Notes under the pieces: generated by a model
Told to the model about the DNA's origin: nothing
The model's input: the letters and a program-made list of their open reading frames with translations, nothing else
Database searches by the model: none
Shown here: piece by piece, positions 1 to 26,623 of the stretch
Layout of the letters: each line of letters begins with the position of its first letter
Position numbering within the stretch: position 1 is the stretch's first letter
Made by a program: the position numbers and the translations under genes
Origin: Pseudidiomarina terrestris
GTDB taxonomy: Bacteria; Pseudomonadota; Gammaproteobacteria; Enterobacterales; Alteromonadaceae
Assembly (NCBI RefSeq): GCF_030466405.1
Contig: NZ_JAGGJF010000001.1
Coordinates: 248,001 to 312,000 of the forward strand
Direction of reading: 5' to 3'
DNA length: 64,000 bases

Positions 1-975
1 CGGGTTACCAAAGTCGAAGAACGCTTCGATACCGCCTGGGTTGGCACTGTCAATCCAGCCGAACATGTTGTCGCCAGAAAGAGTGAACACGATTTTTTCA
101 GCTGGATCCTGGTCTACCTGAACAACGAAATCCCACGCCGAAGCGTTATCATCAGCTGGGCTACCAGCATCAGGGTTGTCAGTAGTTACTACCCAGAATT
201 CGCCATCATCAGTCGAGTAGTTGTTACCGTGAGAGGCACCGTTAACACGGAATAAACGACGGTATTCCCAAACATCCAACTCACCGCTGTATTCTTGTTC
301 AACGCGCAGTTCGAACTGTGGACCCATTTTGAACAACTGAGTGTTGTCGACCATAGGTGAAGTTACAGTGTCAAACGGCCATGGGTTGGTGTTCGTTGGC
401 CATGGCTGATTATCCAGACGTGAGAAGGTGTCAAACATAACACCAGACTGAGCAACAACTACAGGTGCATCAAAGTTGAAGCGACCGAAGTCTAACTCGA
501 TACCGTAAGTGGTGTCGTTAGAAGCAGTAGTTTCATCACCGAAGATGTTCGTTACACGGTAGATAAGAACGGTGTTGTTATCGTCGTCAGCAGTCTGAGC
601 TACGAAATCAAGAGTCATACCCTTGTTCACGTCTTCCAGGTCGCCATCGTCGTTGTAACTGCCTGCAGGAGGCATAATCACACCGTTGCCCGCGAAGTTG
701 CCTTCATCAAACTGCTCACCGAAACCAACTGTTAGCTGATCCGGGTGGCCATCGATGTATGCACCGTCTTCGAAGCGGAGGTAAACGTAATCACCCTCTT
801 TGTATTCGTCGTTCAGGGTCAATACGATATTTTTCGACAAGATTTCATCCATGGTAGACATGAATTCATTTGTCGCATAAGTAGTGTCTGTGAGAGAGAC
901 GTCTGCAGCCATCGCTCCCGTGCTAGCGCCGGCAATTGCCAAAGCTACTAGCGAACGTTTAAACATGTTTGTCAT
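1..975 (-). CDS. S-layer-like secreted surface protein, 3' end outside window
   Basis: Open reading frame of 325 codons read from the complement and still open at base 1, so the C-terminal part is missing. The start at 975 is preceded by GGAGA at five bases. It begins with a Sec signal peptide (MTNMFKRSLVALAIAG, probable cut after AMA at about residue 23). The visible mature part is rich in Asp, Thr, Asn and Gly, contains no cysteine and has no catalytic motif that I recognise. It lies directly downstream of, and in the same direction as, a type II secretion-like gene set ending in a secretin. That position and composition suggest an abundant exported surface protein; proteobacterial S-layer proteins such as SLR4 of Pseudoalteromonas tunicata are the obvious comparison. 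The S-layer role is inference, not sequence proof. Confidence 0.6.
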   Translation of the reverse strand, partial: MTNMFKRSLVALAIAGASTGAMAADVSLTDTTYATNEFMSTMDEILSKNIVLTLNDEYKEGDYVYLRFEDGAYIDGHPDQLTVGFGEQFDEGNFAGNGVIMPPAGSYNDDGDLEDVNKGMTLDFVAQTADDDNNTVLIYRVTNIFGDETTASNDTTYGIELDFGRFNFDAPVVVAQSGVMFDTFSRLDNQPWPTNTNPWPFDTVTSPMVDNTQLFKMGPQFELRVEQEYSGELDVWEYRRLFRVNGASHGNNYSTDDGEFWVVTTDNPDAGSPADDNASAWDFVVQVDQDPAEKIVFTLSGDNMFGWIDSANPGGIEAFFDFGNP

Positions 976-1047
976 GATGTTCTCCAATTTCATGAAATAA
1001 GAGCTTCCAGCTAATAAACAAGCTTTCACTCCTGTAGTTATCAAATT

Positions 1048-1066
1048 GACCTCACCAAATGAGGTC
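1048..1066 (-). other. Short stem-loop in the leader of the S-layer-like gene
   Basis: GACCTC and GAGGTC form a six-base stem around a seven-base loop. Read on the minus strand, no T-tract follows, so it is a poor terminator for the upstream secretin gene. It may be a 5' mRNA structure, which often stabilises abundant transcripts. Function is inferred only. Confidence 0.3.
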
Positions 1067-1113
1067 CCTTCGATTTTTTTCGAACTTTCAGTCTTTTAAG
1101 AGTCGCAGGTCCG

Positions 1114-1138
1114 GTAACGAGGTGATTAATCACGTTAC
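1114..1138. promoter_or_regulatory. Palindromic candidate operator
   Basis: A perfect 12-base palindrome GTGATTAATCAC (1122-1133) is bracketed by GTAAC (1114-1118) and GTTAC (1134-1138). Its placement about 150 bases upstream of the S-layer-like start suits a transcription factor site. No regulator is identified. Confidence 0.3.
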
Positions 1139-1280
1139 AGAACACTCTATTCAAGATGAGAGTCCAAAATACTTCGTTGACTCTTTACCGAGTCCCCTAA
1201 TTGCTTTGCCGTTGAGGTTGTTAATTATGGTTTTTCTATACATCCATATGCTCAACATTTTTGCAAAGTTGCTAGCAAGA

Positions 1281-3302: not shown

Positions 3303-3326
3303 AATTTCCTCATTTCTTCTACGGCG

Positions 3327-3848
3327 CTAATAGTCGAACACCGGAATCGTGACAGATTCGTCGTCACCACCGATAAAGGTGACACTATTGACGTTAATTT
3401 TGCTGACAGTGTAGCCATTCAATTCGAAGCCTTCGCTGATCTCTGTGATCTCGACTTGGCGACTTTCAATTTGCTGAGTATCAATCAGAGCGATACGCGC
3501 ACCGCCGGTTGCGGCTTCACTTGCCGTATACACGCCTCGTACCCGGACTCGCATGTCACCTAAGTTCACCCCACCTTCGAGCAAGGCAGCTTTGGGCTCA
3601 CTTACTGCCACTTGTTGTTCTTGTTGACTTTTTTCTGCTTCTTCGCGGCGCTGTTGCAACCAGCTTTTAACTTCCTCACTGGCCTGTGCCGACGCGAACT
3701 CGATGCCAACTCCGGCCATAGGGTCAAAGTTGCGGGAGGCGTCACTTTCTGCGACATATATACGTTGCGCAAAATCGATGACACAGATGATCACCAATGC
3801 CACAGCTATCAGTTTTACGCTTGTTGGGAGCTGCTGCCAAGCTTTCAT
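3327..3848 (-). CDS. PilP/MshK/GspC-like bitopic inner-membrane protein
   Basis: 173 residues with one membrane segment near the N-terminus (about 12-27), then a Gln/Glu-rich linker and a small C-terminal beta domain ending GYTVSKINVNSVTF (about 143-156). That ending resembles the HR/PilP fold of proteins that connect the inner-membrane platform to the secretin. Its start overlaps the upstream gene by four bases and a 24-base gap separates it from the secretin gene. It probably replaces GspC in this machine; no PDZ domain is visible. The family call rests on shape, position and the C-terminal motif. Confidence 0.65.
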   Translation of the reverse strand: MKAWQQLPTSVKLIAVALVIICVIDFAQRIYVAESDASRNFDPMAGVGIEFASAQASEEVKSWLQQRREEAEKSQQEQQVAVSEPKAALLEGGVNLGDMRVRVRGVYTASEAATGGARIALIDTQQIESRQVEITEISEGFELNGYTVSKINVNSVTFIGGDDESVTIPVFDY

Positions 3849-4396
3849 AACGGCCCTCCCTGCTCGCGCACAGCCACCTGTAAGATTATGGTCAGCTCGT
3901 GGACATTACCGCGGCGCCGTTGCGATGGCCGTAACTCAATACTTTGTTGCCGCACGAATGGCATTTGCTCCATTAAGGCAAGTTGCGCCTGCGCGACATG
4001 CTCGATGGTGCCGGCGATACGAACTTTGGCATTCAAGGTAGCAATACCAGCGCCTTGGCTTTGTAGTCCTGTCATCCAGTTGAATTCATCGATAGCCACA
4101 GTGTGGGTGCGCAATAGTGTTTCAATCTGGTCCTGCATCTGGATCTGCAGCAGTGTAGTTTCCGTGGCGTTGGGCAAGCTTGTGACTATAGTTGCACGCT
4201 GCTCAACCGCAACCTGATGCGCGGCAATCACTTGCTCAGCATGGGACAAGAGTTGTTCGCTACGCTGCACCTGCCCCTGCGTTAGGCCGAGTTCAGTGGT
4301 CAGGTCATTCTGCCAACTTAGAATAGGTTTCACGACAAATTGCAGCGCGGCCAAAAACGCAGCGAAGATCAGTAGTTGACGTTGCGAGCTGGTCAT
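3845..4396 (-). CDS. GspM/PilO/MshJ-like platform protein
   Basis: 183 residues: a short cytoplasmic N-terminus, one membrane helix (about residues 8-25), a coiled-coil-like stretch (about 30-65) and a ferredoxin-like periplasmic region. This is the usual plan of GspM and PilO proteins, which pair with GspL/PilN-type partners. It overlaps both neighbours by four bases (ATGA), so translation is probably coupled. No catalytic residues are expected. Confidence 0.6.
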   Translation of the reverse strand: MTSSQRQLLIFAAFLAALQFVVKPILSWQNDLTTELGLTQGQVQRSEQLLSHAEQVIAAHQVAVEQRATIVTSLPNATETTLLQIQMQDQIETLLRTHTVAIDEFNWMTGLQSQGAGIATLNAKVRIAGTIEHVAQAQLALMEQMPFVRQQSIELRPSQRRRGNVHELTIILQVAVREQGGPL

Positions 4397-5508
4397 TGGC
4401 CACCTCCTTGCTGCAGCAAGGATAAATCTATGCGAAACCGCTGTTTGCCGCTACCACCGCGCACCGGAGATGCGAATTCAGCTTTTTCAACCTGGGGTAA
4501 ATCATGCAAGGTTTTCAATAATTCCAGAGCATTTTCGGTCTGACCACCGACGCTGAGTTGCTTGCCGTCACCCTGCATAAACGACAGGCTGACCTGATGC
4601 TGTTCGATGACCGCGAAGACTTCCCAGAAACCGTTAATAGTGTCGGCATTTACATAGACCTGACTGAGCTGTTCAATACTGTCGCTAACGCTTGCCAATT
4701 CATTCTGCCGGGTGAGCAGTTCACTGACTTCGGGGGTAATGGCTTCGAGTTTATGATTAAGCCAACTGCGCTCAAGCATTAAATAACCGCTGCTTAGCGC
4801 TAAATAAATCGCACCAATAACAGCGATAACGGCGAGGGCCGGTTGCCAGGCAAAGGATTTACTGCTCGCAGATTTTTGCCAGCCCTGGCGCCAATAATGG
4901 CTACCCAGCTTGCTTACGCCACGCGTGATCAGCGGGCCGAGCTGGCTATCATTGATTTGGGTGATCGGGCTGCTGCTTGGGCACCCCAGTGCCAGCTGCG
5001 CACGCTGCGCGTCACGCATCATGCTTGAGCGCACGGCGGTTTGCCACTGCTGCTCTTGATTAAAGAGGAAGTAGCAATGCTCGCCGCTCTCTATTTGGTA
5101 GAAGCCTTCAGTTAAGGCGGCGCTAAGCACCAGCGATTCCGGTAACACGACAAAAGCTCTACTGAGCAGCGCCTGCCCCTCATCATTTAGCGTCAGCGTC
5201 AGGACGCGTCGCTGGCCGTCTTGCCAGGGACCGATAAAATGCTGTTGACTGGAGCTTGTCGCTTTTTGCTTGAGGACTTTTCTTAAACCGTTAAACGATC
5301 GGATAGTGAAGGACTGCCAACTTTCCTGATAAAAGCTGCGCGCCAGCACCAGACAAGCTACCCGACGTTTGGGGGGCGCCGAGGGCTTAGTGTTCTGACC
5401 CTGAAACCACTGGCCTTGTTGATTGACACGCCAAACCAAAGTCGTCATGCCGCCTTTCAGCTGACGCTGAAGCGATGCTTTGGTTTTCGTCGAAGTTGCA
5501 GCTACCAT
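4393..5508 (-). CDS. GspL/MshI-like inner-membrane assembly protein
   Basis: 371 residues. A cytoplasmic N-terminal domain of about 215 residues is followed by one hydrophobic helix (about 220-245, ALAVIAVIGAIYLAL) and a periplasmic C-terminal domain. This matches proteins that join the ATPase to the periplasmic platform (GspL, MshI, PilM/N). The chosen ATG has no clear ribosome site. A second ATG at 5448, preceded by AAAGGCGGC, could be the true start and would give 351 residues. The next gene downstream overlaps by four bases. Confidence 0.6.
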   Translation of the reverse strand: MVAATSTKTKASLQRQLKGGMTTLVWRVNQQGQWFQGQNTKPSAPPKRRVACLVLARSFYQESWQSFTIRSFNGLRKVLKQKATSSSQQHFIGPWQDGQRRVLTLTLNDEGQALLSRAFVVLPESLVLSAALTEGFYQIESGEHCYFLFNQEQQWQTAVRSSMMRDAQRAQLALGCPSSSPITQINDSQLGPLITRGVSKLGSHYWRQGWQKSASSKSFAWQPALAVIAVIGAIYLALSSGYLMLERSWLNHKLEAITPEVSELLTRQNELASVSDSIEQLSQVYVNADTINGFWEVFAVIEQHQVSLSFMQGDGKQLSVGGQTENALELLKTLHDLPQVEKAEFASPVRGGSGKQRFRIDLSLLQQGGGQ

Positions 5509-5539
5509 TTTGTTATCGTTGTACTTATTGTTTTACTGG

Positions 5540-6415
5540 TTATTGTACGGTTCGTTGTGCCTGCTGAAAGTGCTTAGCATGCAAACGCAATGGGATTGGC
5601 TGCCGCGGTCGATAGTCGATGCGCCGATACAGCTGCAACCCGCCAGGCTCTGCAGTGATGCGAATGCGCTGCTGTTCCCCCGGAAAAATATCACTATCAA
5701 GAGCACCCTGTAAATTAATGAACTCTTGTAGCATTCCCACAGCATTATCATTACTTTTTCTTAATGCTTGGATAGTATCAGCTTGCCCCTGGGTTAGCAA
5801 TATGGTCAAAACTTCGTCTGGAGCCCAGGCTGGATTATGGATGTTAGCGTCTAAGGTCGTGTAGGGACGGATTAAATTCACATCCCGCATGGTCCAGTTG
5901 TTAAGGTGAGCTAAGTCCGAAAATGATTGGAAGAACAGCTGATCAGGCTGCATAAGCCACTCTCGTAACTCGCGTGTCATGAGTTCGGCGCGCTGCGGTG
6001 CAACATCGAGCTGTACCAGCAGGTCAGCCAGCTTGTCCGTCTCAAAGCTAACATTCAGCAGACTGCTCTCATTTTGCATCTGTAGGCTCACTGCTGATCC
6101 TAACGGCTCGAACGCAACGCGATTTGGTAGCGGTAAGGAGTGAGGATAGTTATAGAAGTTCACTCCGGCCAGCGGACTCTCAGGGTTATTGCGAGCCAGC
6201 AGCCAGTCATTGCTTAATAACAGAGCATCCAGATAGTTTGCCGTCGACTCCAGTGCTAGTTGCAGTTCGGCTTGATCCTGCATGGCCTGCGCGCGCTGAA
6301 CGGAGGAGCGCGTTTGCTGACTCATTACCAATAGTAAAACTGAAATAATGGCAACCATGAGTAGCACCTGAAAAAGTGCCATGCCTTGTTGGGTTTCGAG
6401 GCGTTGCTTACACAT
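5540..6415 (-). CDS. GspK-like minor pseudopilin
   Basis: 291 residues from the ATG at 6415, which overlaps the upstream gene's stop by eight bases; an upstream in-frame ATG at 6451 lies inside that gene and is less likely. A type III signal is present: a short basic leader, then QQG before MALFQVLLMVAIISVL. Position +5 is Gln instead of Glu, and absence of Glu5 is typical of GspK. The large C-terminal domain is consistent with the alpha-helical insert that lets GspK cap the pseudopilus tip. It follows the H, I and J-like genes as in classical operons. Confidence 0.75.
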   Translation of the reverse strand: MCKQRLETQQGMALFQVLLMVAIISVLLLVMSQQTRSSVQRAQAMQDQAELQLALESTANYLDALLLSNDWLLARNNPESPLAGVNFYNYPHSLPLPNRVAFEPLGSAVSLQMQNESSLLNVSFETDKLADLLVQLDVAPQRAELMTRELREWLMQPDQLFFQSFSDLAHLNNWTMRDVNLIRPYTTLDANIHNPAWAPDEVLTILLTQGQADTIQALRKSNDNAVGMLQEFINLQGALDSDIFPGEQQRIRITAEPGGLQLYRRIDYRPRQPIPLRLHAKHFQQAQRTVQ

Positions 6416-7094
6416 CACGGGTATACCTCGACAGTGCTGATTCAACTGCATCGGGAACCTCGATCAGCCAACGGAAGCCATTCAGGTCGACTTCAATGGC
6501 TTGCGGGTGCAACACGCGCTGCATACCATCATAGTCATTAAACCATTCCAGACTGTAAGCCTGTGCCGCTTCCGCAGATACTGTATCATTGCGTTCACGC
6601 AGAGACTGATAGCCGTAATACCGAAAGTCGATGCGACCGATGTTGTCATACAGAATGCGGCGAAAGTTAAAGGGTAATTCTTGCTCTTCACGACTGAGGT
6701 AAACGTCCGTCAGCACCGCTTCTTCATACACCAGCCGGAAGGTGCCATCGCCATTGGCTTCACGAAATAGACGGTAGACCGCAGCCGCGTCAGGATTCTG
6801 CACGCTGGTGTGAGACACCGCGGTAAAACCCTCCGCGCGCCCCAGAAAATAGAAGCCCAGGCGGTCGTTCTCACCGTAGACCGCTTTCGAGTAGGTGTTC
6901 CAGGTCACTTTCTGCACTAAGCTGGCCAAATGATGACGCTCCCCAGAGCTCTCGGCGAGGCCCTTATTGCGCTGCCAGTTTTGACTGAAATAATCGTAGG
7001 CGAGTGCGCCACTAATCATCAGCAGTGACAGCAGCACCATCGCAATCAGCGTCTCAACTAGGGTGAAGCCGCTTGACGAATTGTTTCGTCCCAT
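6408..7094 (-). CDS. GspJ-like minor pseudopilin
   Basis: 228 residues. The leader ends SSG and is followed by FTLVETLIAMVLLSL, so prepilin peptidase cleavage and Glu5 are conserved. Length is close to GspJ (about 200). It overlaps the I-like gene by 37 bases and the K-like gene by eight. It should form the pseudopilus tip complex with the I-like and K-like subunits. Confidence 0.75.
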   Translation of the reverse strand: MGRNNSSSGFTLVETLIAMVLLSLLMISGALAYDYFSQNWQRNKGLAESSGERHHLASLVQKVTWNTYSKAVYGENDRLGFYFLGRAEGFTAVSHTSVQNPDAAAVYRLFREANGDGTFRLVYEEAVLTDVYLSREEQELPFNFRRILYDNIGRIDFRYYGYQSLRERNDTVSAEAAQAYSLEWFNDYDGMQRVLHPQAIEVDLNGFRWLIEVPDAVESALSRYTRDV

Positions 7095-7495
7095 ACCAGC
7101 TCCTCGTAGTTAAATGTGCGTTGGGTACTACCGTAGTTCATGTTCAGAGTGATCGCGTAGAGTCGATAGCGTTGACCATACTGATTATAAGCGCCTAGTC
7201 CATCATCATAGAAAGGTGCTGGTGGCAGATAGGCAATTTGCTCAGCCTGCCACGCGATCTCTACGTCTTGGCTGAACAGCTCGCTGCCCGACGTTTGGCC
7301 GTCATGCTGCAAGTTGAATTTAATATTGCTGCGCACGGTATCGAGCTGCGTCAGAATATGGGTGACCTCTGCCGCCTTCACCGAATTCTGCATATTATTC
7401 TGAAATGCCATCACGCCGGTGACCACCGTTGCGAATAAAATGGTCATCGCCACCAGGATTTCGATCAAGGTAAAGCCGCTAGTCGCGCGTCGCAT
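7058..7495 (-). CDS. GspI-like minor pseudopilin
   Basis: 145 residues. Leader MRRATSG is followed by FTLIEILVAMTILFATV, giving a prepilin peptidase site with Glu5. Size and position between the H-like and J-like genes fit GspI. Both ends overlap neighbouring genes, which suggests translational coupling within the run. Confidence 0.75.
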   Translation of the reverse strand: MRRATSGFTLIEILVAMTILFATVVTGVMAFQNNMQNSVKAAEVTHILTQLDTVRSNIKFNLQHDGQTSGSELFSQDVEIAWQAEQIAYLPPAPFYDDGLGAYNQYGQRYRLYAITLNMNYGSTQRTFNYEELVWDETIRQAASP

Positions 7496-7967
7496 TGCTC
7501 ACCTCCTCGCCAAGCTCGATCAGCGTCATGTTCAGTTCCCGCCCGAGCTCACGTTCGCCTTCCTGCCAACGCAGGTTAGCTGGTGTCCAGAACCCATTCC
7601 GGTTCAGCGCCAACCGCTGCCCTGGAAAACTCAGATAGTCGAACTCCACCACCTCGCCCCCGCTCTGCTGCAAGTTATCCACAAAGGGCAGCCCTTTCTT
7701 ATCCACAGAGGGCTGCCCTTTCTGGATAAGTAGTTGGTTGGTGTGGGTGGTGAGGGTGTAGGCTTGGTTTTGGCTGTAGGCCTGAAATTGATAGTGGTCG
7801 AGCAGGCGCAGCAGGGCCTCGCGTTCGGCGGTGGCTTTGCTGCGGTCGTACTGGCTTAGGGCGACGGGGCCGATGAGGCTGGCGGCAATGCCAATAATCA
7901 CCAGCACCACCAATAACTCGATAAGGGTGAAGCCGCGATAAAGCTTATCGGCAGCAGCGCGCATCAT
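7479..7967 (-). CDS. GspH-like minor pseudopilin with an internal repeat insertion
   Basis: 162 residues. Leader MMRAAADKLYRG is followed by FTLIELLVVLVIIGIA, a standard class III signal with Glu5. The body has a tandem peptide QKGQPSVD/KKGLPFVD at about residues 83-98, encoded by the 24-bp tandem repeat at 7675-7722. The repeat belongs to a palindromic family seen elsewhere in this window. The frame stays open through it, so the gene is likely functional and the insert probably sits in a surface loop. It overlaps the F-like gene by four bases. Confidence 0.75.
   Translation of the reverse strand: MMRAAADKLYRGFTLIELLVVLVIIGIAASLIGPVALSQYDRSKATAEREALLRLLDHYQFQAYSQNQAYTLTTHTNQLLIQKGQPSVDKKGLPFVDNLQQSGGEVVEFDYLSFPGQRLALNRNGFWTPANLRWQEGERELGRELNMTLIELGEEVSNATRD
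7675..7722. repeat. 24-bp tandem duplication containing AAGGGC-n-GCCCTT palindromes, inside a gene
   Basis: Two adjacent 24-base units, TTATCCACAAAGGGCAGCCC... (7675-7698) and TTATCCACAGAGGGCTGCCC... (7699-7722), differ at two positions. Each contains a near-perfect palindrome. The unit length is a multiple of three, so the reading frame survives. Related cores occur at 41758-41848 and 50695-50751. Confidence 0.9.
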
Positions 7968-9163
7968 ATAGGCATGTCTGTGACGGCGGAAATACTTAGC
8001 ATCATAATGACCACTATGGTGCCGACCACAGCTCCCATGAACAAGATAAGGGCGGGTTCGAGCAAGCTGGTAAAGCGCGTCACCCAGCTATAGAAAGTAC
8101 GACGTGAGCGATCGGCGATTTCGCCAAATACCCGCGCCAGCTCGCCACTTTCTTCACCAATGCTCAACAGTGCGGCGAAGTACGGTGGGTACAAGCGTGA
8201 CTCACTCAAACATTCAGCCAGGCTTTCGCCGCGGTTAACACGCTCAGCGGCACGACGCACTTCCGCCCGTAAAGATTCGGTACGTAAAGTTTTGGCGGCG
8301 AGCTTCATGCTGCGGTCGATGGCTACGCCGGCACTTAACATGACATGCAAGGCTGCATTAAAGCGGATCCGTTCAACCAATAAGTTGGCACCGGACACCA
8401 CCGGCAAGCGCTCGCGACACCAGGTACCTAAGGCTTGCACCCAGGGCTGGTCACGGTAATGCCACAGAGCAAAGCCGCCCCCAATCAAGCCTAACGCCAG
8501 CCACAACTGGTAGTTGAGGAAGAACTCACTAACGGCCAATAAGGCAATGGTATACCCAGGTAAATTCTCCTGGTCCTGAAACAAGGTGGTTAAATTCGGG
8601 ACGACGAAATTAAAAATGAAAACGATGGCAGCAATACACACCGTCAGAATAACTGCGGGGTAGACCAGCGCTTGTTTGATTTTCTCGCGCAGCTCCATTT
8701 GGTAATGCAGCTCGTCAGCAAGGCGCTGGAAAGTTGCCGCTAGCTCGCCGGTTTCTTCGGCAATCTGTACCAGCCCCACATAAAGCGAGCTAAAAACCGG
8801 GAATGCCGCCAGGCTGTCTGAGAGCTTGTGGCCCTGCTTCAGTTGTTGCAGCACGTTTTGCAACATATCGCGTAATGCCGGTTTTTCGACATTGTGCAAG
8901 AGGATCTCTAAGCCTTTATCAACGCGCAGGCCAGAGGTAAGCAGTAAACTGATTTCGGCAGTAAAGAACTCAACATCGCTGATGTTAAGACCGCGCTCGC
9001 CAAAGACGTTAGCATTGAGTCCTGTCGAGGCTTCCTTGATGTCGGCGACCAGCAGTTGCTGGCTTTCCAGGCGGGCTTTGGCCGTGGTCATGTCGACCGC
9101 GTCGATGCGACCTTTCTGCTCAACGCCACTGGTGTTATAGGCGACGTAAGTGAACAGAGCCAT
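7964..9163 (-). CDS. gspF: GspF-type inner-membrane platform protein (second system)
   Basis: 399 residues with the duplicated T2SF layout: two cytoplasmic helical domains (about 65-190 and 265-390) and hydrophobic segments near 170-190, 215-235 and 370-395. The N-terminal MALFTYVAYNTSG is typical of GspF/PilC/MshG. Each half carries a GEESGEL or AEETGEL motif (about 135 and 335). It forms the polytopic platform core with the ATPase. It shares one base with the upstream ATPase gene. Confidence 0.9.
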   Translation of the reverse strand: MALFTYVAYNTSGVEQKGRIDAVDMTTAKARLESQQLLVADIKEASTGLNANVFGERGLNISDVEFFTAEISLLLTSGLRVDKGLEILLHNVEKPALRDMLQNVLQQLKQGHKLSDSLAAFPVFSSLYVGLVQIAEETGELAATFQRLADELHYQMELREKIKQALVYPAVILTVCIAAIVFIFNFVVPNLTTLFQDQENLPGYTIALLAVSEFFLNYQLWLALGLIGGGFALWHYRDQPWVQALGTWCRERLPVVSGANLLVERIRFNAALHVMLSAGVAIDRSMKLAAKTLRTESLRAEVRRAAERVNRGESLAECLSESRLYPPYFAALLSIGEESGELARVFGEIADRSRRTFYSWVTRFTSLLEPALILFMGAVVGTIVVIMMLSISAVTDMPI

Positions 9164-10860
9164 TAGCCTGCAACCCTCACCACTTCAGCTAACGTGGTTT
9201 CGCCACGAAGGGCTTTTAGAACGCCATCTTCGAGCAGGTTACGGTAACCACGTTCACGGTTCAGCCGGCGGGCTTTGGTCAGAAATTCGGCGTCACCAAG
9301 TAACGCGGTAAGTTGCTCATCACAGCGCATGTACTCGATGAGTGCGACCCGGCCTTTGTAACCGGTATTGGCACATTGGTCGCAGCCAACTGCTTTGTGT
9401 AAGGCTGGCGTCACCGCAAAGCGTTCCTGCAACCAGTCCATTTTCATATTGCGGAAGTTCGCTGCAGCGTCAGGATCAGGCTGTTTACAGTGCGGACACA
9501 GCTTACGTGCCAAGCGTTGCCCAACAATGACTTTGATCGCTGCCGATAACAGGAATTCTTCTACGCCTAAATCGAGTAAGCGGGTATAAGCACTGGCGGC
9601 ATCATTGGTGTGCAAGGTACTAAATACCAGATGCCCCGTTAATGCGGATTGCAGCGCAATACCGGCTGTTTCGGCATCACGGATCTCACCCACCATAATG
9701 ATGTCGGGGTCTTGTCGTACCACCGAGCGCAACGCGTTAGCGAAGGTAAAGCCGATGTCACTTTGTACGTGGACCTGATTGATGCCGTCGAGTTGATACT
9801 CCACGGGATCTTCGATGGTAATAATTTTGACGTCAGGCTCATTGCGACGCGATAAAAACGAGTAGAGGCTGGTGGTTTTACCCGAGCCCGTTGGACCGGT
9901 CAGCAGAACGACCCCTGAGGTCGCCTGAATGTCGCGCAATAATTCAGCTTCAACATCTGGCTCAATACCCAGGGTCTTCACATCATAGGCGAGGTTATCT
10001 TGTAGCAAGAAGCGCATCACCACGCTCTCGCCCTCACCTACTGGCAATGCCGAAACCCGCACGTCCACATTGAGACCATCGATACGCAATTCTATTTTGC
10101 CATCCTGGGGCCGACGCTTTTCGGCGATATCCATGCTCGACAGTAATTTCAGTCGGGTGACTACGGGCAGCACCATGTGCATGGGAATAAAATCGGCTTC
10201 GTGCAAGACGCCATCAATACGATAGCGAACCCGCCCTTTGCCTTTCCAGGGCTCGATGTGCATGTCTGACGCACGGCGCCGCAGTGCTTTGGCGATAAGA
10301 TTATTGAGCAGGTTGACCGTGGGCGCCTCAGACGCGAGTTCACGCAGACGGTCTTCTTCGAGCATGGTCAGACCGGCATCTTCGCTCGGTCCCTCACTTT
10401 CCTGCTGCCAGCGATTCTTAAGCTGGTTGTAAACATCATCACCCACTACCACCAACTGCAGGTCCAGCGCACCAAGGTTGGCAACAAACTCAAGCAAGGC
10501 TGGCTGGCTGGGATTGGTACATACGACTTTTAGAAGCGGTTGGTCGGGACTGTAGGCAATGGGGACACATTGCTGGGCGACAGCTTTACTGGCGAGTTCT
10601 GCTGGCAGTTGTTCATGCAGCTGAGTCCAGTGCTCGTCGTCGTCGAGCAAGGCTTGTTGCTCATCTTCGCCAAGTCGCTGAAGTTCATAAACCTCAGCGT
10701 AATAGGCGGGTAAGTATTCTGAGCTCAACGCGCCCATGCGCACCAATATCTGCTCCAGCTGGCCGCCATTGCGACTCTGGAATTGCAACGCTTTGGTCAG
10801 ATCATCCTGATTGACCCGAAAGCGCTCCGTAAACAGCTGGGTGACGTTGGCTGTACTCAT
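9163..10860 (-). CDS. gspE: GspE/MshE-type secretion ATPase (second system)
   Basis: 565 residues. An N-terminal T2SSE_N/MshEN-like region covers about 1-150. The ATPase core has Walker A GPTGSGKT (322-329), an Asp box near 348-352, and DPDIIMVGEIRD (384-395). Four cysteines (455, 458, 493, 496) form the usual zinc site. The protein powers pseudopilus assembly at the inner membrane. In the N-terminal repeat the RLG triplet of the c-di-GMP-binding MshEN motif looks degenerate (NVT), so nucleotide control is doubtful. It overlaps the pseudopilin gene by four bases. Confidence 0.9.
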   Translation of the reverse strand: MSTANVTQLFTERFRVNQDDLTKALQFQSRNGGQLEQILVRMGALSSEYLPAYYAEVYELQRLGEDEQQALLDDDEHWTQLHEQLPAELASKAVAQQCVPIAYSPDQPLLKVVCTNPSQPALLEFVANLGALDLQLVVVGDDVYNQLKNRWQQESEGPSEDAGLTMLEEDRLRELASEAPTVNLLNNLIAKALRRRASDMHIEPWKGKGRVRYRIDGVLHEADFIPMHMVLPVVTRLKLLSSMDIAEKRRPQDGKIELRIDGLNVDVRVSALPVGEGESVVMRFLLQDNLAYDVKTLGIEPDVEAELLRDIQATSGVVLLTGPTGSGKTTSLYSFLSRRNEPDVKIITIEDPVEYQLDGINQVHVQSDIGFTFANALRSVVRQDPDIIMVGEIRDAETAGIALQSALTGHLVFSTLHTNDAASAYTRLLDLGVEEFLLSAAIKVIVGQRLARKLCPHCKQPDPDAAANFRNMKMDWLQERFAVTPALHKAVGCDQCANTGYKGRVALIEYMRCDEQLTALLGDAEFLTKARRLNRERGYRNLLEDGVLKALRGETTLAEVVRVAG

Positions 10861-11270
10861 TGTAAAATGATATCTGCGTTATTCTCTTCGCCGCCTTCGC
10901 GGCCATCAGCTCCATACGACAATAAAGTAAAAGGAGCACCATCGTCACCCGGCATACGGTAAACATAGTCGTTGCCCCAAGGATCCGGTGGAACGTCTTT
11001 CGGAAAGTAAGGCCCCTGCCAGTTCACATCATCGCTGGTCAAAAGCTGGTCTAGGCTATCGGGGTAACGCCCCATATCCAGACGATAGGTACTCAATGAG
11101 GTTTCCAGCATCTTCATCTGGGTTTCAGCAGTTTTGATTTTCGATGAATCAACTTTTCCGAACATCTGCGGCGCCACCAGGCTTGCTAATAACCCCAAAA
11201 TCACAATAACGATCAACAGCTCAATCAAGGTAAAACCACGTTGCTTGACCACTAGCGCACTAGGTTTCAT
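10857..11270 (-). CDS. gspG: GspG-type major pseudopilin (second system)
   Basis: 137 residues. Leader MKPSALVVKQRG is followed by FTLIELLIVIVILGLLASLVAP, with Glu5. The C-terminal half has the GspG pattern DPWGNDYVYR and an acidic DGREGGEENNAD end that fits the calcium site of major pseudopilins. It is the first machine gene here, 22 bases after the YjbH-like gene, and has its own GGAGTG ribosome site. That suggests the polysaccharide genes and the export machine share a transcript. Confidence 0.88.
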   Translation of the reverse strand: MKPSALVVKQRGFTLIELLIVIVILGLLASLVAPQMFGKVDSSKIKTAETQMKMLETSLSTYRLDMGRYPDSLDQLLTSDDVNWQGPYFPKDVPPDPWGNDYVYRMPGDDGAPFTLLSYGADGREGGEENNADIILQ

Positions 11271-11292
11271 TGTTCACTCCACTATTCTGTAA

Positions 11293-13455
11293 TTATTCTT
11301 TATAAAACGGACTCCGAAGATCCGTTGCATGGAACAATTGCACACTGCGGCCTAGCATCTGACCACCATCACGCGTGAGCGGTGTCCAGCCAATGAAGCC
11401 GCGGTTAGGACTATGTTCCGTTTGTAAGATGTCGATTGGGAAACTTATGTAGAAACCCTTGGTAAAGCTACCTTCACCATACTCGCGAGAAGAAACATTG
11501 GTCTTCGCCGCGTAGGCCCCAACTATGACACCACTTTTAAACTTATGTTCAACATTTAACTGCAGACCGTTGTCTTGTGCAAGGAATTTACCAAATGCAG
11601 CCTTAATTAATGTGTTGGGCATAAATTTTGGCTCATAGTAGCCGGTAATATGACCGGTAAAGGTATCGTAGTCGAGAAAGCCTGTGTGACTTTCATAATC
11701 ACGCTGTTTCACCCAGTTCAGATCGACGCCAACGGCCCAGTTGCTGTCCAACTCACGATACAACAACTCGGTTCCGACACCACCGAACATGCGCTCGAGG
11801 TAACCGGCATAGACACTGGTGTAAACATTAGGTGCGAGCTGATTGATGTGGCTCAGCTGCAAGCTGTCCATCCAGATATCACTGAAGGTCGTGTACTCGC
11901 GGACGTAGGTACGGACACGCGGTAACTTCGACTGAAAACCATCGACAAGGAAGTTAAAATCGTCGAAGTTGGTGAGCAGGTTACCGCTGATGGTTCCGTG
12001 CGCAAACGTACCCGGCGCCAGCCACATGGATGCGTTGAGATCGAGACCAAACTGGTACATGTAGAAATTCTCAGGGTTACCGAAGCTCTGGTCCAGGAAC
12101 GGACGGACGCTGAAACGCGGCCAGCCCCGACGGTACTTCGCTTCATACAAACCCTCATCTGCTCTGGCGCTAAGGTCGGTATTCTGGCGGCTGAAAGCAT
12201 CTGCTAACTCAGTATCAAAGTCCGTGTTATGGATGGCTTTGCGCGCGATTTCGAGATCAATTTTGGTGGTCGCAAGCTGAATTTGGTCGTTCTGCTCGAC
12301 CACTTCTACGTAGTTGTAGTTCTCTGGCAGGCTTTGATCGGCGATACGTGCGACCTGACGGATCCCCTCTTCATAGTCGCGGTAATAGCGCTGGGTGCCA
12401 TAAATACGCAAGGTATCTATTCCATCAGCTTCTGCGGAACTCTCGTTTTGCAGCTCACTGACGGTGATCCCCGCGAGCCGCCACACATTACCGCGCAATT
12501 TGCGGGTGCTTTGCTCGGTTTCGAGGTCTTCGGCACGCGCTAATGCGGTGCGGGTGTTAGGAGTGGGTACCCGCCGGTTGGCTGTTTTTACCTGGCCAAG
12601 ACTATTGAGATCGAGGGCTCCGGAAAAACCGAACATGAAGGTATTGCCACGCTCGTAACTCAGTTTTAGTGTCCAGGTATCATCAATCTGATAATCAGCG
12701 CCGAAGTTCCAGGCTGAGTCCACGTCAAGTCGACCGAGGAAACGCTCATCACTGTAATCATTACCATCGTATTCAGCCTTTAAGACCAATGGGGCAAACG
12801 GCGTCTGGTATTGGATGCCTCCAAACACTGATGTTTCGCCACGAAACCACTTGTCCGTTTCAAATCGACCACCGCTGCCACTAAATCCTGGCTCTCGGAC
12901 ACAAAAGCGATCTGAAACTTCACAGAAAGGGTTAGTGATGTTATCGCGGCGGCCCATATAGCCCCACCCTAAACCTAAAGTGAGGTCAACGGGGCCAAAC
13001 CTTTTACTTGCGACAACATACTCGCTGGCAAAGATCCCTGTACCTGCCAAATCACGCCAACCTACAGCAACCTGCGGTAGCCAATAGCTTTCCTGGAGCA
13101 GCCGCAACTTGACATCAAAGCCTTTGTCTTTACCCGTTTGATCGCCACTAAAATCCGGGTCGGAGCTATATTTTATCGGTCGTATATCGTTGTAGCGAAC
13201 CGTGGTCTCTAACCAAGGAAACAGCTGCAAACTTATGGCAAGTCGACGATATTCTTCGTTGTCATAATACAAGCCCGTCAAGGTTCCATAATCAGCAAAA
13301 CGGGCATTTGGCATTTGCATCAAGCCAACACCACCGAAATCCGATTGGCTGGCGTACTCATCTGCCATCACCACAGGTGTTGCTACAACAGCACTGAGCG
13401 CTAAAGCAACGGCCGAAAGCTTACGAGGAGATGAAGGAAAGCGTAAAAACGTCAT
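11293..13455 (-). CDS. yjbH: YjbH/GfcD-like outer-membrane polysaccharide protein
   Basis: 720 residues from the ATG at 13455, which overlaps the upstream stop by four bases; a longer open frame begins at 13512 but leaves the signal peptide internal. The signal peptide (MTFLRFPSSPRKL... to about VVMA) is followed by GGVGLMQMPNARF, characteristic of the YjbH family. The remainder alternates aromatic and polar residues as expected of an outer-membrane beta-barrel. In E. coli, YjbH/GfcD belongs to an operon for extracellular or group 4 capsule polysaccharide. It is third of three consecutive yjbFGH-type genes here. Confidence 0.85.
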   Translation of the reverse strand: MTFLRFPSSPRKLSAVALALSAVVATPVVMADEYASQSDFGGVGLMQMPNARFADYGTLTGLYYDNEEYRRLAISLQLFPWLETTVRYNDIRPIKYSSDPDFSGDQTGKDKGFDVKLRLLQESYWLPQVAVGWRDLAGTGIFASEYVVASKRFGPVDLTLGLGWGYMGRRDNITNPFCEVSDRFCVREPGFSGSGGRFETDKWFRGETSVFGGIQYQTPFAPLVLKAEYDGNDYSDERFLGRLDVDSAWNFGADYQIDDTWTLKLSYERGNTFMFGFSGALDLNSLGQVKTANRRVPTPNTRTALARAEDLETEQSTRKLRGNVWRLAGITVSELQNESSAEADGIDTLRIYGTQRYYRDYEEGIRQVARIADQSLPENYNYVEVVEQNDQIQLATTKIDLEIARKAIHNTDFDTELADAFSRQNTDLSARADEGLYEAKYRRGWPRFSVRPFLDQSFGNPENFYMYQFGLDLNASMWLAPGTFAHGTISGNLLTNFDDFNFLVDGFQSKLPRVRTYVREYTTFSDIWMDSLQLSHINQLAPNVYTSVYAGYLERMFGGVGTELLYRELDSNWAVGVDLNWVKQRDYESHTGFLDYDTFTGHITGYYEPKFMPNTLIKAAFGKFLAQDNGLQLNVEHKFKSGVIVGAYAAKTNVSSREYGEGSFTKGFYISFPIDILQTEHSPNRGFIGWTPLTRDGGQMLGRSVQLFHATDLRSPFYKE

Positions 13456-14324
13456 GATTGCGGATTCCAATAGCGCGCTAACGCACTGATTTGCTGATTC
13501 AGGTTCTGCCATTCGTTATCCAGGCTGCTCAAATCCAACGGCACAAAAATCAATCCATGGACTGGGGGTAATGCCTTGGCATCATTGTAATAAGCAACTT
13601 TAGTGCGCGCTGAAAGGCCAGTGATAGCAATCAGCTCGACTTCGGTAAGGTTATAATCTTGCCTGAATACGTCGCCTCGTTTCAATATCGAGCGGACGGT
13701 ATCCTGTTCCGTAAACTGCAACTGCTGAACACCATCAGCAGAAATTAAAGTAACTTGCCAGGGGCCGAGAGCTTTGGGTGGCAGCAACTGATAATCGCCG
13801 GCAGGTAACAACGGATTGGCATCCATATCACTGGCTGCCGCGCTAAAACTACTAAACAAGGATTTGCGCTCAACATCGACCCCACTTTGCACTTCCAGAC
13901 TGTCATCAATCTTAGTCAGGCCAATCCATTCCGCGCCTACTAATGGCCACTGGTGAATTTGCTCTGCGTAAGCTTGAGCAGCTTGAGCTAATTCCAACTC
14001 GCCTGAGGCTGTAGCAATCTGAGTAAGCCGTTCAAGGCGCTGCAAAACATGCTGCCGGCGTTGCTTTAGCTGCTCCGTCTGACGCACACTAAGCAGTCGA
14101 GTCGACGCCCAGTAGGCCGCTGGAGCGAGCTCTGCAGCTTGATAGATTTTTAGGAGCCGGGGCCGCTCGCTGAAAGCGTAAACCTGATTACCCACTGTCA
14201 CAGTCACGGGCGCAGCGCCAGTCGCCGCCTGCTCCTGAGCCAGCCCCACTCCAAGGCCGCCAAAACCCAGAACCAAAAAAGTGACTAAGTGACACGCGAA
14301 CTGATAGCAACGGCGAACCATCAT
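13452..14324 (-). CDS. yjbG: YjbG/GfcC-like periplasmic capsule biogenesis protein
   Basis: 290 residues with an N-terminal signal peptide (cut near LAQ, about residue 30). The segment AAYWASTRLLS (about 69-79) is typical of GfcC. A following Gln/Arg-rich helical region and a C-terminal beta domain (LKRGDVFRQDYNL) complete the family pattern. Family members work in the periplasm in export of group 4-type polysaccharide. It overlaps both neighbours by four bases, so yjbFGH are probably translationally coupled. Confidence 0.82.
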   Translation of the reverse strand: MMVRRCYQFACHLVTFLVLGFGGLGVGLAQEQAATGAAPVTVTVGNQVYAFSERPRLLKIYQAAELAPAAYWASTRLLSVRQTEQLKQRRQHVLQRLERLTQIATASGELELAQAAQAYAEQIHQWPLVGAEWIGLTKIDDSLEVQSGVDVERKSLFSSFSAAASDMDANPLLPAGDYQLLPPKALGPWQVTLISADGVQQLQFTEQDTVRSILKRGDVFRQDYNLTEVELIAITGLSARTKVAYYNDAKALPPVHGLIFVPLDLSSLDNEWQNLNQQISALARYWNPQS

Positions 14325-15010
14325 TGCAGATCTCCATCAAAAGGCTTCATCTCACGCCAGACTGCGTAACCAATACCAGGCGAGACCCATTGCTTTGCAT
14401 ACACAATACGACCATCAACGGCATAAAAGGTGTTACTAAATTCTTGTCGGTTCGCTTGCCCTTGCTCGCGAATCTCGATCACCCGTAGTTGGGTTCCGTC
14501 GGGATGTTGATAGTCACGTTCTGTACCTACGCTAAACCTCGAACTCACCTGCCATTTGCTGATGTCGTTCTCACCGTAATTGCCAACTTCAACCTGGCGT
14601 TGCCAGGTGTTGTCGCATTCTGTCGCGGTTGTCCTGGCGGCATGTTTTGCGTAGCAAACGAGCGGGTCAGTGGACCAGGCACTCGTGAAAAGCGGCATTC
14701 CGGGAATGCCGGCGGCGGTTAAAATGCGACCATACTGCGTGGTGATGGCTTCTTCACCGCCAGTGCGATAGACCCTCTGGGAACCAACAGCGCGATCTAA
14801 AACAGCTACCACTTGTGGAAATTTATCAGTGCGGACATAAGCCGCAGCGTAAGGGTAATCTGAGACTTCCTCGACAGTCAGTTCGAGTCCCTTGTGTCCA
14901 AAAAAGGCGGTTTCTGCAGTATCCACCATATTCTTAACACGGGTACTGCAGCCAGCAAGAACCAGCAAAGAAAGTGCAGAGGTGACGAGGAGTCGGGAAT
15001 TGATTCGCAT
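14321..15010 (-). CDS. yjbF: YjbF/GfcB-like lipoprotein
   Basis: 229 residues. Lipobox LAGC places the lipidated cysteine at residue 21. The remaining sequence matches the YjbF/GfcB family in length and in its DYPYAAAYVRT start to the mature domain. Family members are outer-membrane-associated lipoproteins of exopolysaccharide operons. It lies after a strong stem-loop at 15058-15090 that separates it from the small YjbE-like gene. Confidence 0.8.
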   Translation of the reverse strand: MRINSRLLVTSALSLLVLAGCSTRVKNMVDTAETAFFGHKGLELTVEEVSDYPYAAAYVRTDKFPQVVAVLDRAVGSQRVYRTGGEEAITTQYGRILTAAGIPGMPLFTSAWSTDPLVCYAKHAARTTATECDNTWQRQVEVGNYGENDISKWQVSSRFSVGTERDYQHPDGTQLRVIEIREQGQANRQEFSNTFYAVDGRIVYAKQWVSPGIGYAVWREMKPFDGDLQ

Positions 15011-15057
15011 ACAAAGTTCGCTTTCTGGTTGTTGGCTACTTTTTGTTCAGCACCTAA

Positions 15058-15090
15058 AAAAATACCGCAGTGCGCACCTGCGGTATTTTT
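15058..15090 (-). terminator. Strong hairpin between the YjbE-like gene and yjbF
   Basis: A 13-base perfect stem (AAAAATACCGCAG with CTGCGGTATTTTT) closes a seven-base loop and gives U-rich flanks in both directions. It sits 18 bases after the YjbE-like stop and 47 bases before the yjbF start. It probably acts as a leaky terminator that makes the small first gene more abundant than the rest. Confidence 0.85.
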
Positions 15091-15108
15091 CAGTTCATCG
15101 ACGCTAGA

Positions 15109-15429
15109 TTAGAAACCTGTTGTCGTAGTTACCACTGGAGCCGTTGTCGTGGTTACCGGTGGCTCAGGTTCTGGTTCTGGCTCTGGCTCCGGCTCAGGTT
15201 CTGGCTCTGGTTCCGGCTCAGGCTCCGGTGGCGGAGTCGCGTCTGAGTCGTCGTTGTCAAGTGTCGCAGCGATTGTTAACGCTACGATACCAGCCGCGGC
15301 TACAGAACCTTTAGTGATGAAACCACCACCGTCACTGTCGCCTTCTGCGCTGGTTGCACCTGTCTGAGCAAATGCAGCTGGTGCTAACACCAAGCTGATT
15401 GCTGCAGCTAATGCAGTACGTTTGATCAT
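15109..15429 (-). CDS. YjbE/GfcA-like small secreted protein with Glu-Pro repeat
   Basis: 106 residues from the ATG at 15429, which has GAGGTG eight bases upstream; the longer open frame to 15501 lacks a ribosome site. It has a signal peptide (cut after AFA, about residue 21), a Gly/Ala-rich hydrophobic stretch (about 36-57), an acidic link, about twelve Glu-Pro dipeptides, and a Thr-rich tail VTTTTAPVVTTTTGF. YjbE/GfcA proteins are also short, exported and Thr-rich, and precede yjbFGH. The assignment is by position and composition, not by a detailed match. Confidence 0.6.
   Translation of the reverse strand: MIKRTALAAAISLVLAPAAFAQTGATSAEGDSDGGGFITKGSVAAAGIVALTIAATLDNDDSDATPPPEPEPEPEPEPEPEPEPEPEPEPPVTTTTAPVVTTTTGF
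15161..15228. repeat. 6-bp degenerate microsatellite encoding Glu-Pro repeats
   Basis: About eleven copies of GGYTCN in tandem on the plus strand encode Pro-Glu dipeptides on the minus strand. Units vary only at synonymous or near-synonymous positions. Slippage by whole units would change the linker length without a frameshift. Confidence 0.85.
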
Positions 15430-17159: not shown

Positions 17160-17668
17160 GCCAGGCCGACCTTCAACCGCCGCACGTGTACGTGGCCTGG
17201 TGTGTTGCCGCGAGTGATATCGAGTTGTTCAATACTCAGCCCCGATTCAGCCTGAAGCGCATCAAGAAGTGCCAACACCCGTTCGAAGGGGACATCATTG
17301 AGCACCACAACTAAGCTATCGCCTTCCGGATTCATCCGTCCGACGTCAAGTTGCTGGGCTCGCGCAAACTCGGTGACCAGCCGCGGAATATCGCCAAGTT
17401 CATTCGCACGCCGCGCAGTAGTTCCCGTTTGAGGTTGTCCTGACTGTTGCTTGAGCGCCAGGTAGCGACCTGTGTTCTCACGCACCCAGGACAGAGTTTC
17501 CAGCTGTGCGTCACGCTGCAACTGACGCTGCTCGATACCACTTTGCAGCGGTTGCCAAAGGGCAAAATAGACGACACTGATAGCCAGTACGATGCCAGCC
17601 AAACTTACCAATAACCGCTCACGGTTATTGAGCTGTTGCCAACGTAGTTGAAGTTGTTCATGCAACAT
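17156..17668 (-). CDS. gspM: Type II secretion protein GspM
   Basis: 170 residues. A cytoplasmic start (WQQLNNRERLLV) precedes one membrane helix (about 19-37) and a ferredoxin-like periplasmic domain. GspM stabilises GspL in the inner-membrane platform. Three bases separate it from the gspL stop and it overlaps gspN by four bases. Confidence 0.88.
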   Translation of the reverse strand: MLHEQLQLRWQQLNNRERLLVSLAGIVLAISVVYFALWQPLQSGIEQRQLQRDAQLETLSWVRENTGRYLALKQQSGQPQTGTTARRANELGDIPRLVTEFARAQQLDVGRMNPEGDSLVVVLNDVPFERVLALLDALQAESGLSIEQLDITRGNTPGHVHVRRLKVGLA

Positions 17669-17671
17669 CGC

Positions 17672-21771: not shown

Positions 21772-21783
21772 ACTTCCTCCAGA

Positions 21784-23028: not shown

Positions 23029-23030
23029 AG

Positions 23031-26610: not shown

Positions 26611-26623
26611 AGTTGGTCCTATT

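What the first reader, a model, noticed from the sequence alone, without database searches (positions are those of the whole stretch)
1..15429. Polysaccharide genes, a type II-like export machine and an S-layer-like protein in one run
A YjbE-like gene, yjbF-yjbG-yjbH, eleven secretion-machine genes and a large exported protein gene all lie on the minus strand with overlaps or gaps of at most 31 bases from 15,010 to 3,303 (22 bases between yjbH and gspG). I infer one functional unit: a dedicated machine that exports the surface protein while the Yjb/Gfc proteins make or export a glycan that might anchor or coat it. The yjb/gfc families and T2SS are known separately; their joint role here is my hypothesis.
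Basis: partly seen in the sequence, partly recalled or inferred. Interest (0 to 1): 0.85.

Follow-up and report, generated by a model that had tools for sequence, protein, structure and literature searches.

The report
S-layer export genes amid polysaccharide genes
A marine bacterium keeps the gene for its crystalline protein coat, the pump that probably exports it, and genes that make and export a sugar polymer side by side, and relatives in many genera keep similar sugar-polymer genes near the same pump, which suggests, but does not prove, that the polymer helps hold or cover the coat.

Summary
The gene run is real. The protein cut off by base 1 is a full Slr4 S-layer protein (PF19526, 95 bits, cut-off 25). 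A T2SS gene cluster directly upstream of slr4 is already published (PMC7821379). The organism is a Pseudidiomarina. yjbH lies 12-30 nt before gspG in 10 of 10 Pseudidiomarina slr4 loci examined; of 80 upstream loci surveyed only the six of this genus have it there. YjbH is rarer in slr4-positive family genomes (24 of 70) than in the rest (135 of 225), so Yjb is a lineage-specific partner, not a requirement. The wider pattern is stronger: 67 of 72 slr4 genomes (30 of 33 genera) have an OPX-exporter or WecA-like gene before the T2SS, or a Wzx-flippase or pyruvyl-transferase gene within 25 kb. Most likely a dedicated T2SS exports Slr4 while the flanking locus makes a glycan that tethers or coats the layer. 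Linkage is shown; export route and tethering are inferred. Aeromonas offers a precedent: its S-layer T2SS and vapA sit inside the O-antigen cluster (PMC4413209, PMC4483657). New variant of a known kind.

The parts
1..975 (-). slr4, N-terminal 325 codons; the gene continues 779 bases left of the window (L002:11221-12975, G000:C6:247221-248975), 584 aa
   Evidence: PF19526 Slr4, 95.4 bits, cut-off 25; signal-peptide-like N-terminus MFKRSLVALAIAGASTGAMAA (sequence); AF2 model resembling tandem Ig-like beta-sandwiches
976..1280 (-). 305-nt leader between gspD and slr4, partly conserved in ten Pseudidiomarina
   Evidence: alignment A5; consensus structure weakly supported; no Rfam match near gathering score in L002:10900-13400, best E 0.047 at half the gathering score
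1281..3302 (-). gspD, secretin with a lipobox-like N-terminus (LSC)
   Evidence: PF00263 163.7 bits; TIGR02517 332.8 bits, below its cut-off of 351.35; matches solved GspD chains
3327..3848 (-). small gene between gspM and gspD, gspC/xpsN-like by position
   Evidence: no family hit over cut-off; homologue detected in 13 of 80 loci only; same position as Orf2 of the Aeromonas sps cluster (PMC4413209)
3845..4396 (-). gspM-like
   Evidence: NF040576 XpsM-type GspM 32.1 bits, below cut-off 60; homologue in 64 of 80 loci
4393..5508 (-). gspL-like by position
   Evidence: no Pfam or NCBIfam hit; homologue in 63 of 80 loci
5540..6451 (-). gspK-like
   Evidence: NF037980 26.2 bits, below cut-off 130; homologue in 63 of 80 loci
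6408..7094 (-). gspJ-like pseudopilin
   Evidence: N_methyl motif PF07963 over cut-off
7058..7495 (-). gspI-like pseudopilin
   Evidence: N_methyl over cut-off; TIGR01707 26.5 bits, below cut-off
7479..7967 (-). gspH-like pseudopilin
   Evidence: N_methyl over cut-off; TIGR01708 47.3 bits, below cut-off
7964..9163 (-). gspF-like inner-membrane protein
   Evidence: position and sequence; homologue in 71 of 80 loci; not itself scanned against Pfam
9163..10860 (-). gspE ATPase
   Evidence: Walker A GPTGSGKT in the sequence; matches solved PilB and GspE chains
10857..11270 (-). gspG major pseudopilin
   Evidence: PF08334 109.6 bits
11293..13512 (-). yjbH/gfcD outer-membrane protein, S-layer-linked copy
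   Evidence: PF06082 759.8 bits; 12-30 nt before gspG in 10 of 10 Pseudidiomarina loci; own clade, 100/100 support
13452..14324 (-). yjbG/gfcC
   Evidence: PF20616 31.4 bits (cut-off 22.1) and PF06251 20.6 bits (cut-off 20)
14321..15010 (-). yjbF/gfcB lipoprotein
   Evidence: PF11102 70.7 bits; lipobox-like LAGC in the sequence
15109..15429 (-). yjbE-like small exported protein (assignment by position)
   Evidence: no specific family hit; signal-peptide-like start
15508..16335 (-). mscS-type channel, conserved upstream neighbour
   Evidence: PF00924 78.2 bits; next to yjbE in all six upstream loci of this genus

Best explanation
The run is an S-layer biogenesis module. Slr4 crosses the inner membrane by its Sec-type signal and is carried across the outer membrane by the gspG-to-gspD T2SS encoded directly upstream. 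The flanking polysaccharide genes make and export a surface glycan that tethers or coats the lattice. In many genera the T2SS run is headed by an OPX-exporter gene and often an initiating WecA-like transferase gene, and Wzx, chain-length, glycosyltransferase and often pyruvyl-transferase genes lie beyond slr4. In Pseudidiomarina the upstream slot is taken by yjbE-F-G-H, whose GfcD-type outer-membrane protein I take to be the exit port for that glycan. Shown: protein family, gene order, its recurrence, and the tight yjbH-gspG spacing. Inferred: that this T2SS exports Slr4, that Yjb exports the glycan, and that the glycan binds or covers Slr4.
For: Slr4 match. D, E and F in the upstream region in 70 of 80 slr4 loci. 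yjbH 12-30 nt before gspG in 10 of 10 Pseudidiomarina loci. An SLBB/OPX gene upstream on the T2SS strand in 44 of 71 loci with gspE (23 of 32 genera), 42 of them within 2.5 kb of gspG; a WecA-like gene within 600 nt of gspG in 29 of 71 (12 genera), touching or overlapping it in L061 and L126. Pyruvyl-transferase gene within 25 kb of slr4 in 41 of the 54 slr4 genomes that have one (42 of 81 hits; about 1 expected by uniform placement; 34 genomes downstream, 7 upstream), and a Wzx flippase within 25 kb in at least 45 of 72. Some such linkage in 67 of 72 genomes. Where slr4 genomes have YjbH it lies within 60 kb in 19 of 22, on different sides in different genera. Precedents, seen as passages: S-layer T2SS inside the O-antigen cluster and the A-layer tethered by LPS in Aeromonas (PMC4413209, PMC4483657); GfcD modelled as exporter of lipid-anchored polysaccharide (PMC11494523).
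Against: YjbH is depleted among slr4-positive genomes (24 of 70 against 135 of 225). Presence of a pyruvyl transferase differs only modestly (52 of 70 against 128 of 225), and 18 of 72 slr4 genomes lack one. 5 of 72 show none of the polysaccharide genes scored. 25 of 71 loci have neither OPX nor WecA-like gene upstream, six of them this genus. In two loci (L128, L129) the T2SS is on the strand opposite to slr4. slr4 has a 305-nt leader and a terminator-like site after it, so slr4, the T2SS and wzx may be separate transcripts. The published S-layer had to be stripped of a capsule to be seen (PMC7821379), which fits a coat at least as well as a tether. The genomes share ancestry, so the counts are not independent, and no matched control family was run for the distances. 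No carbohydrate-binding domain appeared among the Pfam hits or listed fold matches of Slr4.
Confidence: 0.55

Rival explanations
1. Shared island only: S-layer genes and polysaccharide genes gather in the same variable surface locus because both are swapped by recombination, with no working link between glycan and lattice.
For: Polysaccharide content differs between genera and gene order shuffles. In Aeromonas the S-layer genes appear inserted into the O-antigen cluster and loss of vapA does not change LPS (PMC4413209).
Against: Same-strand touching or near-touching of wecA-like genes with gspG and of yjbH with gspG, kept across species, and linkage in 30 of 33 genera, are tighter than a shared hotspot needs.
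Confidence: 0.25
2. Coat without tether (a sub-case of the best reading, overlapping its odds): the glycan is an outer capsule that covers the S-layer; co-localisation serves joint regulation.
For: The P. tunicata S-layer was hidden under a capsule (PMC7821379). The own downstream locus has Wza- and Wzc-type genes over cut-off and a Wzi-like gene below cut-off.
Against: A coat-only function gives less reason for polysaccharide export genes to be joined to the T2SS genes.
Confidence: 0.3
3. The linked glycan is transferred onto Slr4 (S-layer glycosylation) by the O-antigen-ligase-like protein encoded downstream.
For: O-antigen-ligase-like/Wzy_C protein at L002:5734-7002, PF13425 31.8 bits (cut-off 31) and PF04932 25.7 bits (below its cut-off of 31.7).
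Against: The same gene fits a Wzy polymerase; in the downstream regions read, strong matches were only in this genus.
Confidence: 0.1
4. The T2SS is not dedicated: Slr4 leaves by the canonical gspC-N system next door and this T2SS exports something else.
For: A second, canonical T2SS gene set lies at window 16386-27559.
Against: D, E and F of this divergent T2SS upstream of slr4 in 70 of 80 loci; the Aeromonas sps system is called essential for its S-layer (PMC10765051, passage).
Confidence: 0.07

Closest known systems
Slr4 S-layer locus of Pseudoalteromonas tunicata (PMC7821379; Pfam PF19526)
   Same: Same protein family, T2SS gene cluster directly upstream; dedicated secretion already proposed there; Idiomarina already listed as a carrier (passages)
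   Different: Main text has no hits for Yjb, Gfc, SLBB, Wza, Wzx, WecA, flippase, glycosyl or transferase, nor has the AnnoView paper PMC11094555 for Yjb, Gfc, SLBB, polysaccharide, glycosyl, Wzx, WecA or pyruvyl; figures and supplements not seen, and their neighbourhood figures may show some of these genes
Aeromonas vapA/sps S-layer system inside the O-antigen cluster (PMC4413209, PMC4483657; passages)
   Same: T2SS E-F-G-H-I-J-K-L-M-Orf2-D followed by the S-layer gene, embedded in polysaccharide genes; A-layer tethered by LPS
   Different: There an ABC-transporter (Wzm/Wzt) O-antigen; here Wzx-type and OPX genes; gspG stands first here; homology of VapA and Slr4 not tested
gfcABCD/yjbEFGH of E. 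coli (PMC8592465, abstract; PMC9603273 and PMC11494523, passages)
   Same: YjbF, YjbG and YjbH families met
   Different: Here joined to a T2SS and S-layer gene; no gfcE-etp-etk directly beside this copy; the genome's second yjbH copy is the one next to Wza and Wzc genes
NpdA S-layer with upstream gsp genes (PMC10765051, passages)
   Same: S-layer gene with an upstream cluster of 12 gsp genes
   Different: Named by its authors as a different S-layer protein from Slr4 (homology not tested here); 'polysaccharide' does not occur in the text searched

Membership tests
Slr4 S-layer proteins (PF19526) | Match over the curated cut-off | tested here: met
   95.4 bits, cut-off 25, residues 117-561
Slr4 S-layer proteins (PF19526) | T2SS cluster directly upstream | tested here: met
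   window 1281-11270
Slr4 S-layer proteins (PF19526) | Forms a paracrystalline lattice on cells | not testable with these tools
   needs electron microscopy
Slr4 S-layer proteins (PF19526) | RsaA-like beta-helical fold, as threaded in PMC7821379 | tested here: inconclusive
   AF2 model with 69 rows (pLDDT 77.2, pTM 0.74) gave best matches to tandem Ig-like beta-sandwich proteins over residues 14-426 at middling scores
Type II secretion system | Secretin, ATPase and major pseudopilin | tested here: met
   PF00263 and PF08334 over cut-off; gspE matches solved PilB/GspE
Type II secretion system | GspD equivalog model TIGR02517 over its cut-off | tested here: not met
   332.8 against 351.35; a divergent T2SS-type secretin
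Type II secretion system | Prepilin peptidase in the genome | tested here: met
   one, G000:C6:376736-377065, outside the cluster
Yjb/Gfc polysaccharide export proteins | YjbF, YjbG, YjbH families over cut-off | tested here: met
   PF11102, PF20616, PF06251, PF06082
Yjb/Gfc polysaccharide export proteins | YjbE/GfcA | tested here: inconclusive
   only compositional-looking hits below cut-off
Aeromonas-type S-layer T2SS (sps) | T2SS genes ending in D then the S-layer gene, inside a polysaccharide cluster | tested here: met
   gene order here against PMC4413209; gspG is first here, third there
Aeromonas-type S-layer T2SS (sps) | Sequence homology to SpsD and VapA | not tested
   sequences not fetched
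Group 4 capsule operon | gfcE-etp-etk in the same operon as gfcABCD | tested here: not met
   gspG follows yjbH directly; the Wza and Wzc genes identified adjoin the second yjbH copy

The most novel reading that the evidence does not exclude
Slr4-type S-layers of marine Gammaproteobacteria are held by a dedicated glycan made and exported by genes built into the same locus as their secretion system. The glycan is often pyruvylated, so the attachment is functionally like the pyruvylated polymers that bind SLH-domain S-layers in Gram-positive bacteria, and in Pseudidiomarina it is set into the outer membrane as a lipid-anchored polymer by YjbH.
Probability: 0.15. Interest if true: 0.8.

Novelty: new variant of a known kind. 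Interest (0 to 1): 0.52.

Why it matters
To my knowledge (recalled, and the introduction of PMC7821379), attachment of Gram-negative S-layers is understood in only a few cases, through LPS. If the linked glycan anchors Slr4, a widespread marine S-layer gains an attachment mechanism, the poorly understood YjbEFGH/GfcABCD exporters gain a physiological partner, and both become testable with single gene deletions in harmless marine strains.

Tried and rejected
Single-protein search with the own Slr4 across the order found only 4 of 247 genomes; the protein is too divergent, so the Pfam profile was used (14 of 247 order genomes, 70 of 295 family genomes). First AF2 model with six rows was poor (pLDDT 42.5) and was replaced by one with 69 rows. 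Idea that the genome's second yjbH is a recent duplicate of the window copy: rejected, the window-type copies form one clade with the own second copy outside it, though the program warned of long branches, so deeper placement is unsure. Idea that YjbH is generally needed for Slr4: rejected by depletion. A structured leader RNA before slr4: not supported enough (8 of 29 pairs with a two-sided change, covariation term -0.4; no Rfam family near its gathering score). RsaA or another S-layer protein did not appear among the listed fold matches; absence there proves nothing. Terminator-like sites around slr4 were 4 against a shuffled mean of 2.0, so the count itself is weak evidence; the recurrence of one site in ten species (own script, no shuffled control) is the stronger point.

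Rows dropped and limits: of 77 slr4-positive genomes (70 family, 7 order), G308 (fragment) was left out of the upstream survey (80 loci, 76 genomes), and G308, G387, G424, G434 and G467 (fragment or weak) out of the 72-genome counts. Seven of the 80 upstream loci are shorter than 20 kb at contig ends. Of the 10 loci without D, E and F all found, some are second slr4 copies, weak slr4 hits or contig ends. The Wzx and, YjbH listings were truncated by the tool, so Wzx counts are lower bounds. Some YjbH matches counted as present are divergent and weak. Two of the WecA-like hits (G367, G464) are weak. The tallies use positions and genus labels copied by hand. Binomial P values printed ignore shared ancestry and are not used. 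Downstream regions of the 20 genomes were not obtained, and those of several second loci were not asked for, so one search covers the rest only.


Full report
What is there. The window is G000:C6:248001-312000. Extending to the left (L002) completes the truncated protein: 584 aa, PF19526 Slr4 at 95.4 bits against a cut-off of 25. The genome belongs to Pseudidiomarina: five sampled members of its genus have contigs of the same length as named Pseudidiomarina records found with the gspD alignment (P. piscicola, sp. CB1, P. homiensis, P. aestuarii, P. aquimaris).

The secretion genes. gspD and gspG pass Pfam cut-offs, gspE matches solved PilB/GspE chains, H, I and J carry the prepilin motif. K, L, M and the small gene before gspD score below curated cut-offs or not at all; gspF was not scanned. 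gspD misses the GspD equivalog cut-off (332.8 against 351.35), so this is a divergent T2SS. A second, canonical T2SS gene set lies just beyond mscS at 16386-27559: N, M, L, K, J, I, H, G and F by Pfam and a secretin, with E- and C-sized ORFs not scanned. The only prepilin peptidase found is elsewhere.

What is already known. T2SS genes directly upstream of slr4, and the proposal of a dedicated T2SS, are in PMC7821379 (abstract and passages) and repeated in PMC11094555 (passages). In Aeromonas the S-layer T2SS plus vapA lies inside the O-antigen cluster and the A-layer is tethered by LPS (PMC4413209, PMC4483657; passages). The S-layer-T2SS half of the finding is therefore not new, and an S-layer-T2SS-polysaccharide arrangement has a precedent.

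The Yjb part. yjbF, yjbG and yjbH are sound family members; yjbE is by position. yjbH stands 12-30 nt before gspG in 10 of 10 Pseudidiomarina slr4 loci examined (nine named plus the own). Among 80 upstream loci from 76 slr4 genomes, only the six of this genus have yjbH there (seven loci are shorter than 20 kb). In Rheinheimera aquimaris and an Aliidiomarina MAG, where slr4 follows the T2SS, yjb genes instead lie about 4 kb beyond slr4. Of 22 slr4 genomes with YjbH, 19 have it within 60 kb of slr4. Against a general need: 24 of 70 slr4-positive family genomes have YjbH, against 135 of 225 of the others. The window-type yjbH copies form a clade with full support; the genome's second yjbH (G000:C6:220380-222575), next to Wza and Wzc genes, is outside it.

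The wider polysaccharide link. Downstream of slr4 in the own genome follow wzx, a nitroreductase-like gene, two Wzz-like genes (both below cut-off), an O-antigen-ligase/Wzy-like gene, a polysaccharide pyruvyl transferase, glycosyltransferases (one of them labelled by eye), UDP-GlcNAc epimerase, WecG-like, UDP-sugar dehydrogenase, WecA-like and a 918-aa SLBB/OPX gene. In many other genera the OPX and WecA-like genes stand before gspG on the T2SS strand: OPX in 44 of 71 loci with gspE (23 of 32 genera), 42 within 2.5 kb; WecA-like within 600 nt in 29 (12 genera), touching or overlapping gspG in L061 and L126 if the first possible start codon is used. 25 of the 71 have neither, six of them this genus. 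A pyruvyl-transferase gene lies within 25 kb of slr4 in 41 of 54 genomes that have one, downstream in 34 and upstream in 7, and a Wzx within 25 kb in at least 45 of 72 (truncated listing). Together 67 of 72 genomes and 30 of 33 genera show at least one of these; 40 genomes show both kinds. Presence alone is less telling: pyruvyl transferase in 52 of 70 slr4-positive and 128 of 225 other family genomes. Shared ancestry means these are not independent events, and the only null used for distance was uniform placement in a 4.2-Mb genome.

Transcription. yjbF to gspD is tightly packed. A 305-nt leader precedes slr4 and a GC hairpin with a T run follows it. The same kind of site follows at least the first slr4 copy in 10 of 10 Pseudidiomarina loci, including species with three or four tandem slr4-like copies, though not after every later copy. 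So slr4 probably has its own transcript end, and wzx is probably a separate unit. These are sequence patterns, not measurements.

Slr4 itself. Across 69 aligned proteins the mean column identity is 17%. AF2 gives pLDDT 77.2 and pTM 0.74. Foldseek's best rows are integrin legs and adhesin Ig-like arrays with E down to 7.6e-7 but TM-scores of 0.25 or less; VIA-align gives Z 9.0 at most with rmsd above 11 for the top rows, residues 14-426. This differs from the RsaA-like beta-helix threaded in PMC7821379, but the matches are middling and settle nothing.

Mechanism and verdict. The best reading is a dedicated T2SS for Slr4 within a glycan locus, the glycan tethering or coating the lattice, with YjbH as its exit in this genus. 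GfcD, the YjbH relative, has been modelled as an exporter of lipid-anchored polysaccharide (PMC11494523, passages) and grouped with polysaccharide porins (PMC9603273, passages); both are computational for this protein. Biochemically, GfcB, GfcC and GfcD bind one another at the outer membrane (PMC8592465, abstract). In E. coli, yjbEFGH mutations alter colanic-acid anchoring (PMC8117528, passages). Tether, coat, protein glycosylation and mere co-residence are not separated by sequence. Searches for a published Slr4-polysaccharide link (listings) found none in this open-access library; of the six papers holding both 'Slr4' and 'S-layer' four were opened in passages and two not. Subscription papers, figures and supplements were not seen.

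Noticed in passing
window 16386-27559: A canonical T2SS gene set (gspN, M, L, K, J, I, H, G, F by Pfam; then E-, D- and C-sized ORFs, the D with a secretin hit) lies next to the divergent S-layer T2SS, separated by mscS and yjbE-H.
   Followed up: partly
L193, L194, L195, L197 about 12-22 kb: Several Pseudidiomarina carry three to four tandem, divergent slr4-like genes, most followed by a terminator-like site; possible variable or multi-protein S-layers. One copy in L194 is split into two frames.
   Followed up: partly
window 976-1280: Partly conserved leader of about 260-320 nt between gspD and slr4 in ten species; possible mRNA-stability or control element.
   Followed up: partly
L002:4614-5762 and 8612-9703: A nitroreductase-like gene and a polysaccharide pyruvyl transferase, often close to each other and to wzx, recur downstream of slr4 in several genera; the role of the nitroreductase-like protein is unknown.
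   Followed up: partly
L170:14572-15981: The second yjb locus has a single ORF matching YjbF in its first half and the GfcC (YjbG) N-domain in its second half, an apparent fusion.
   Followed up: no
L128 and L129 (G075, G150): In these two loci the T2SS run is on the strand opposite to slr4, unlike 65 of the other loci where both strands were known.
   Followed up: no
L100 (G230): A divergent slr4 locus has T2SS order E-F-G-H, as in Aeromonas sps, rather than G-E-F-H.
   Followed up: no
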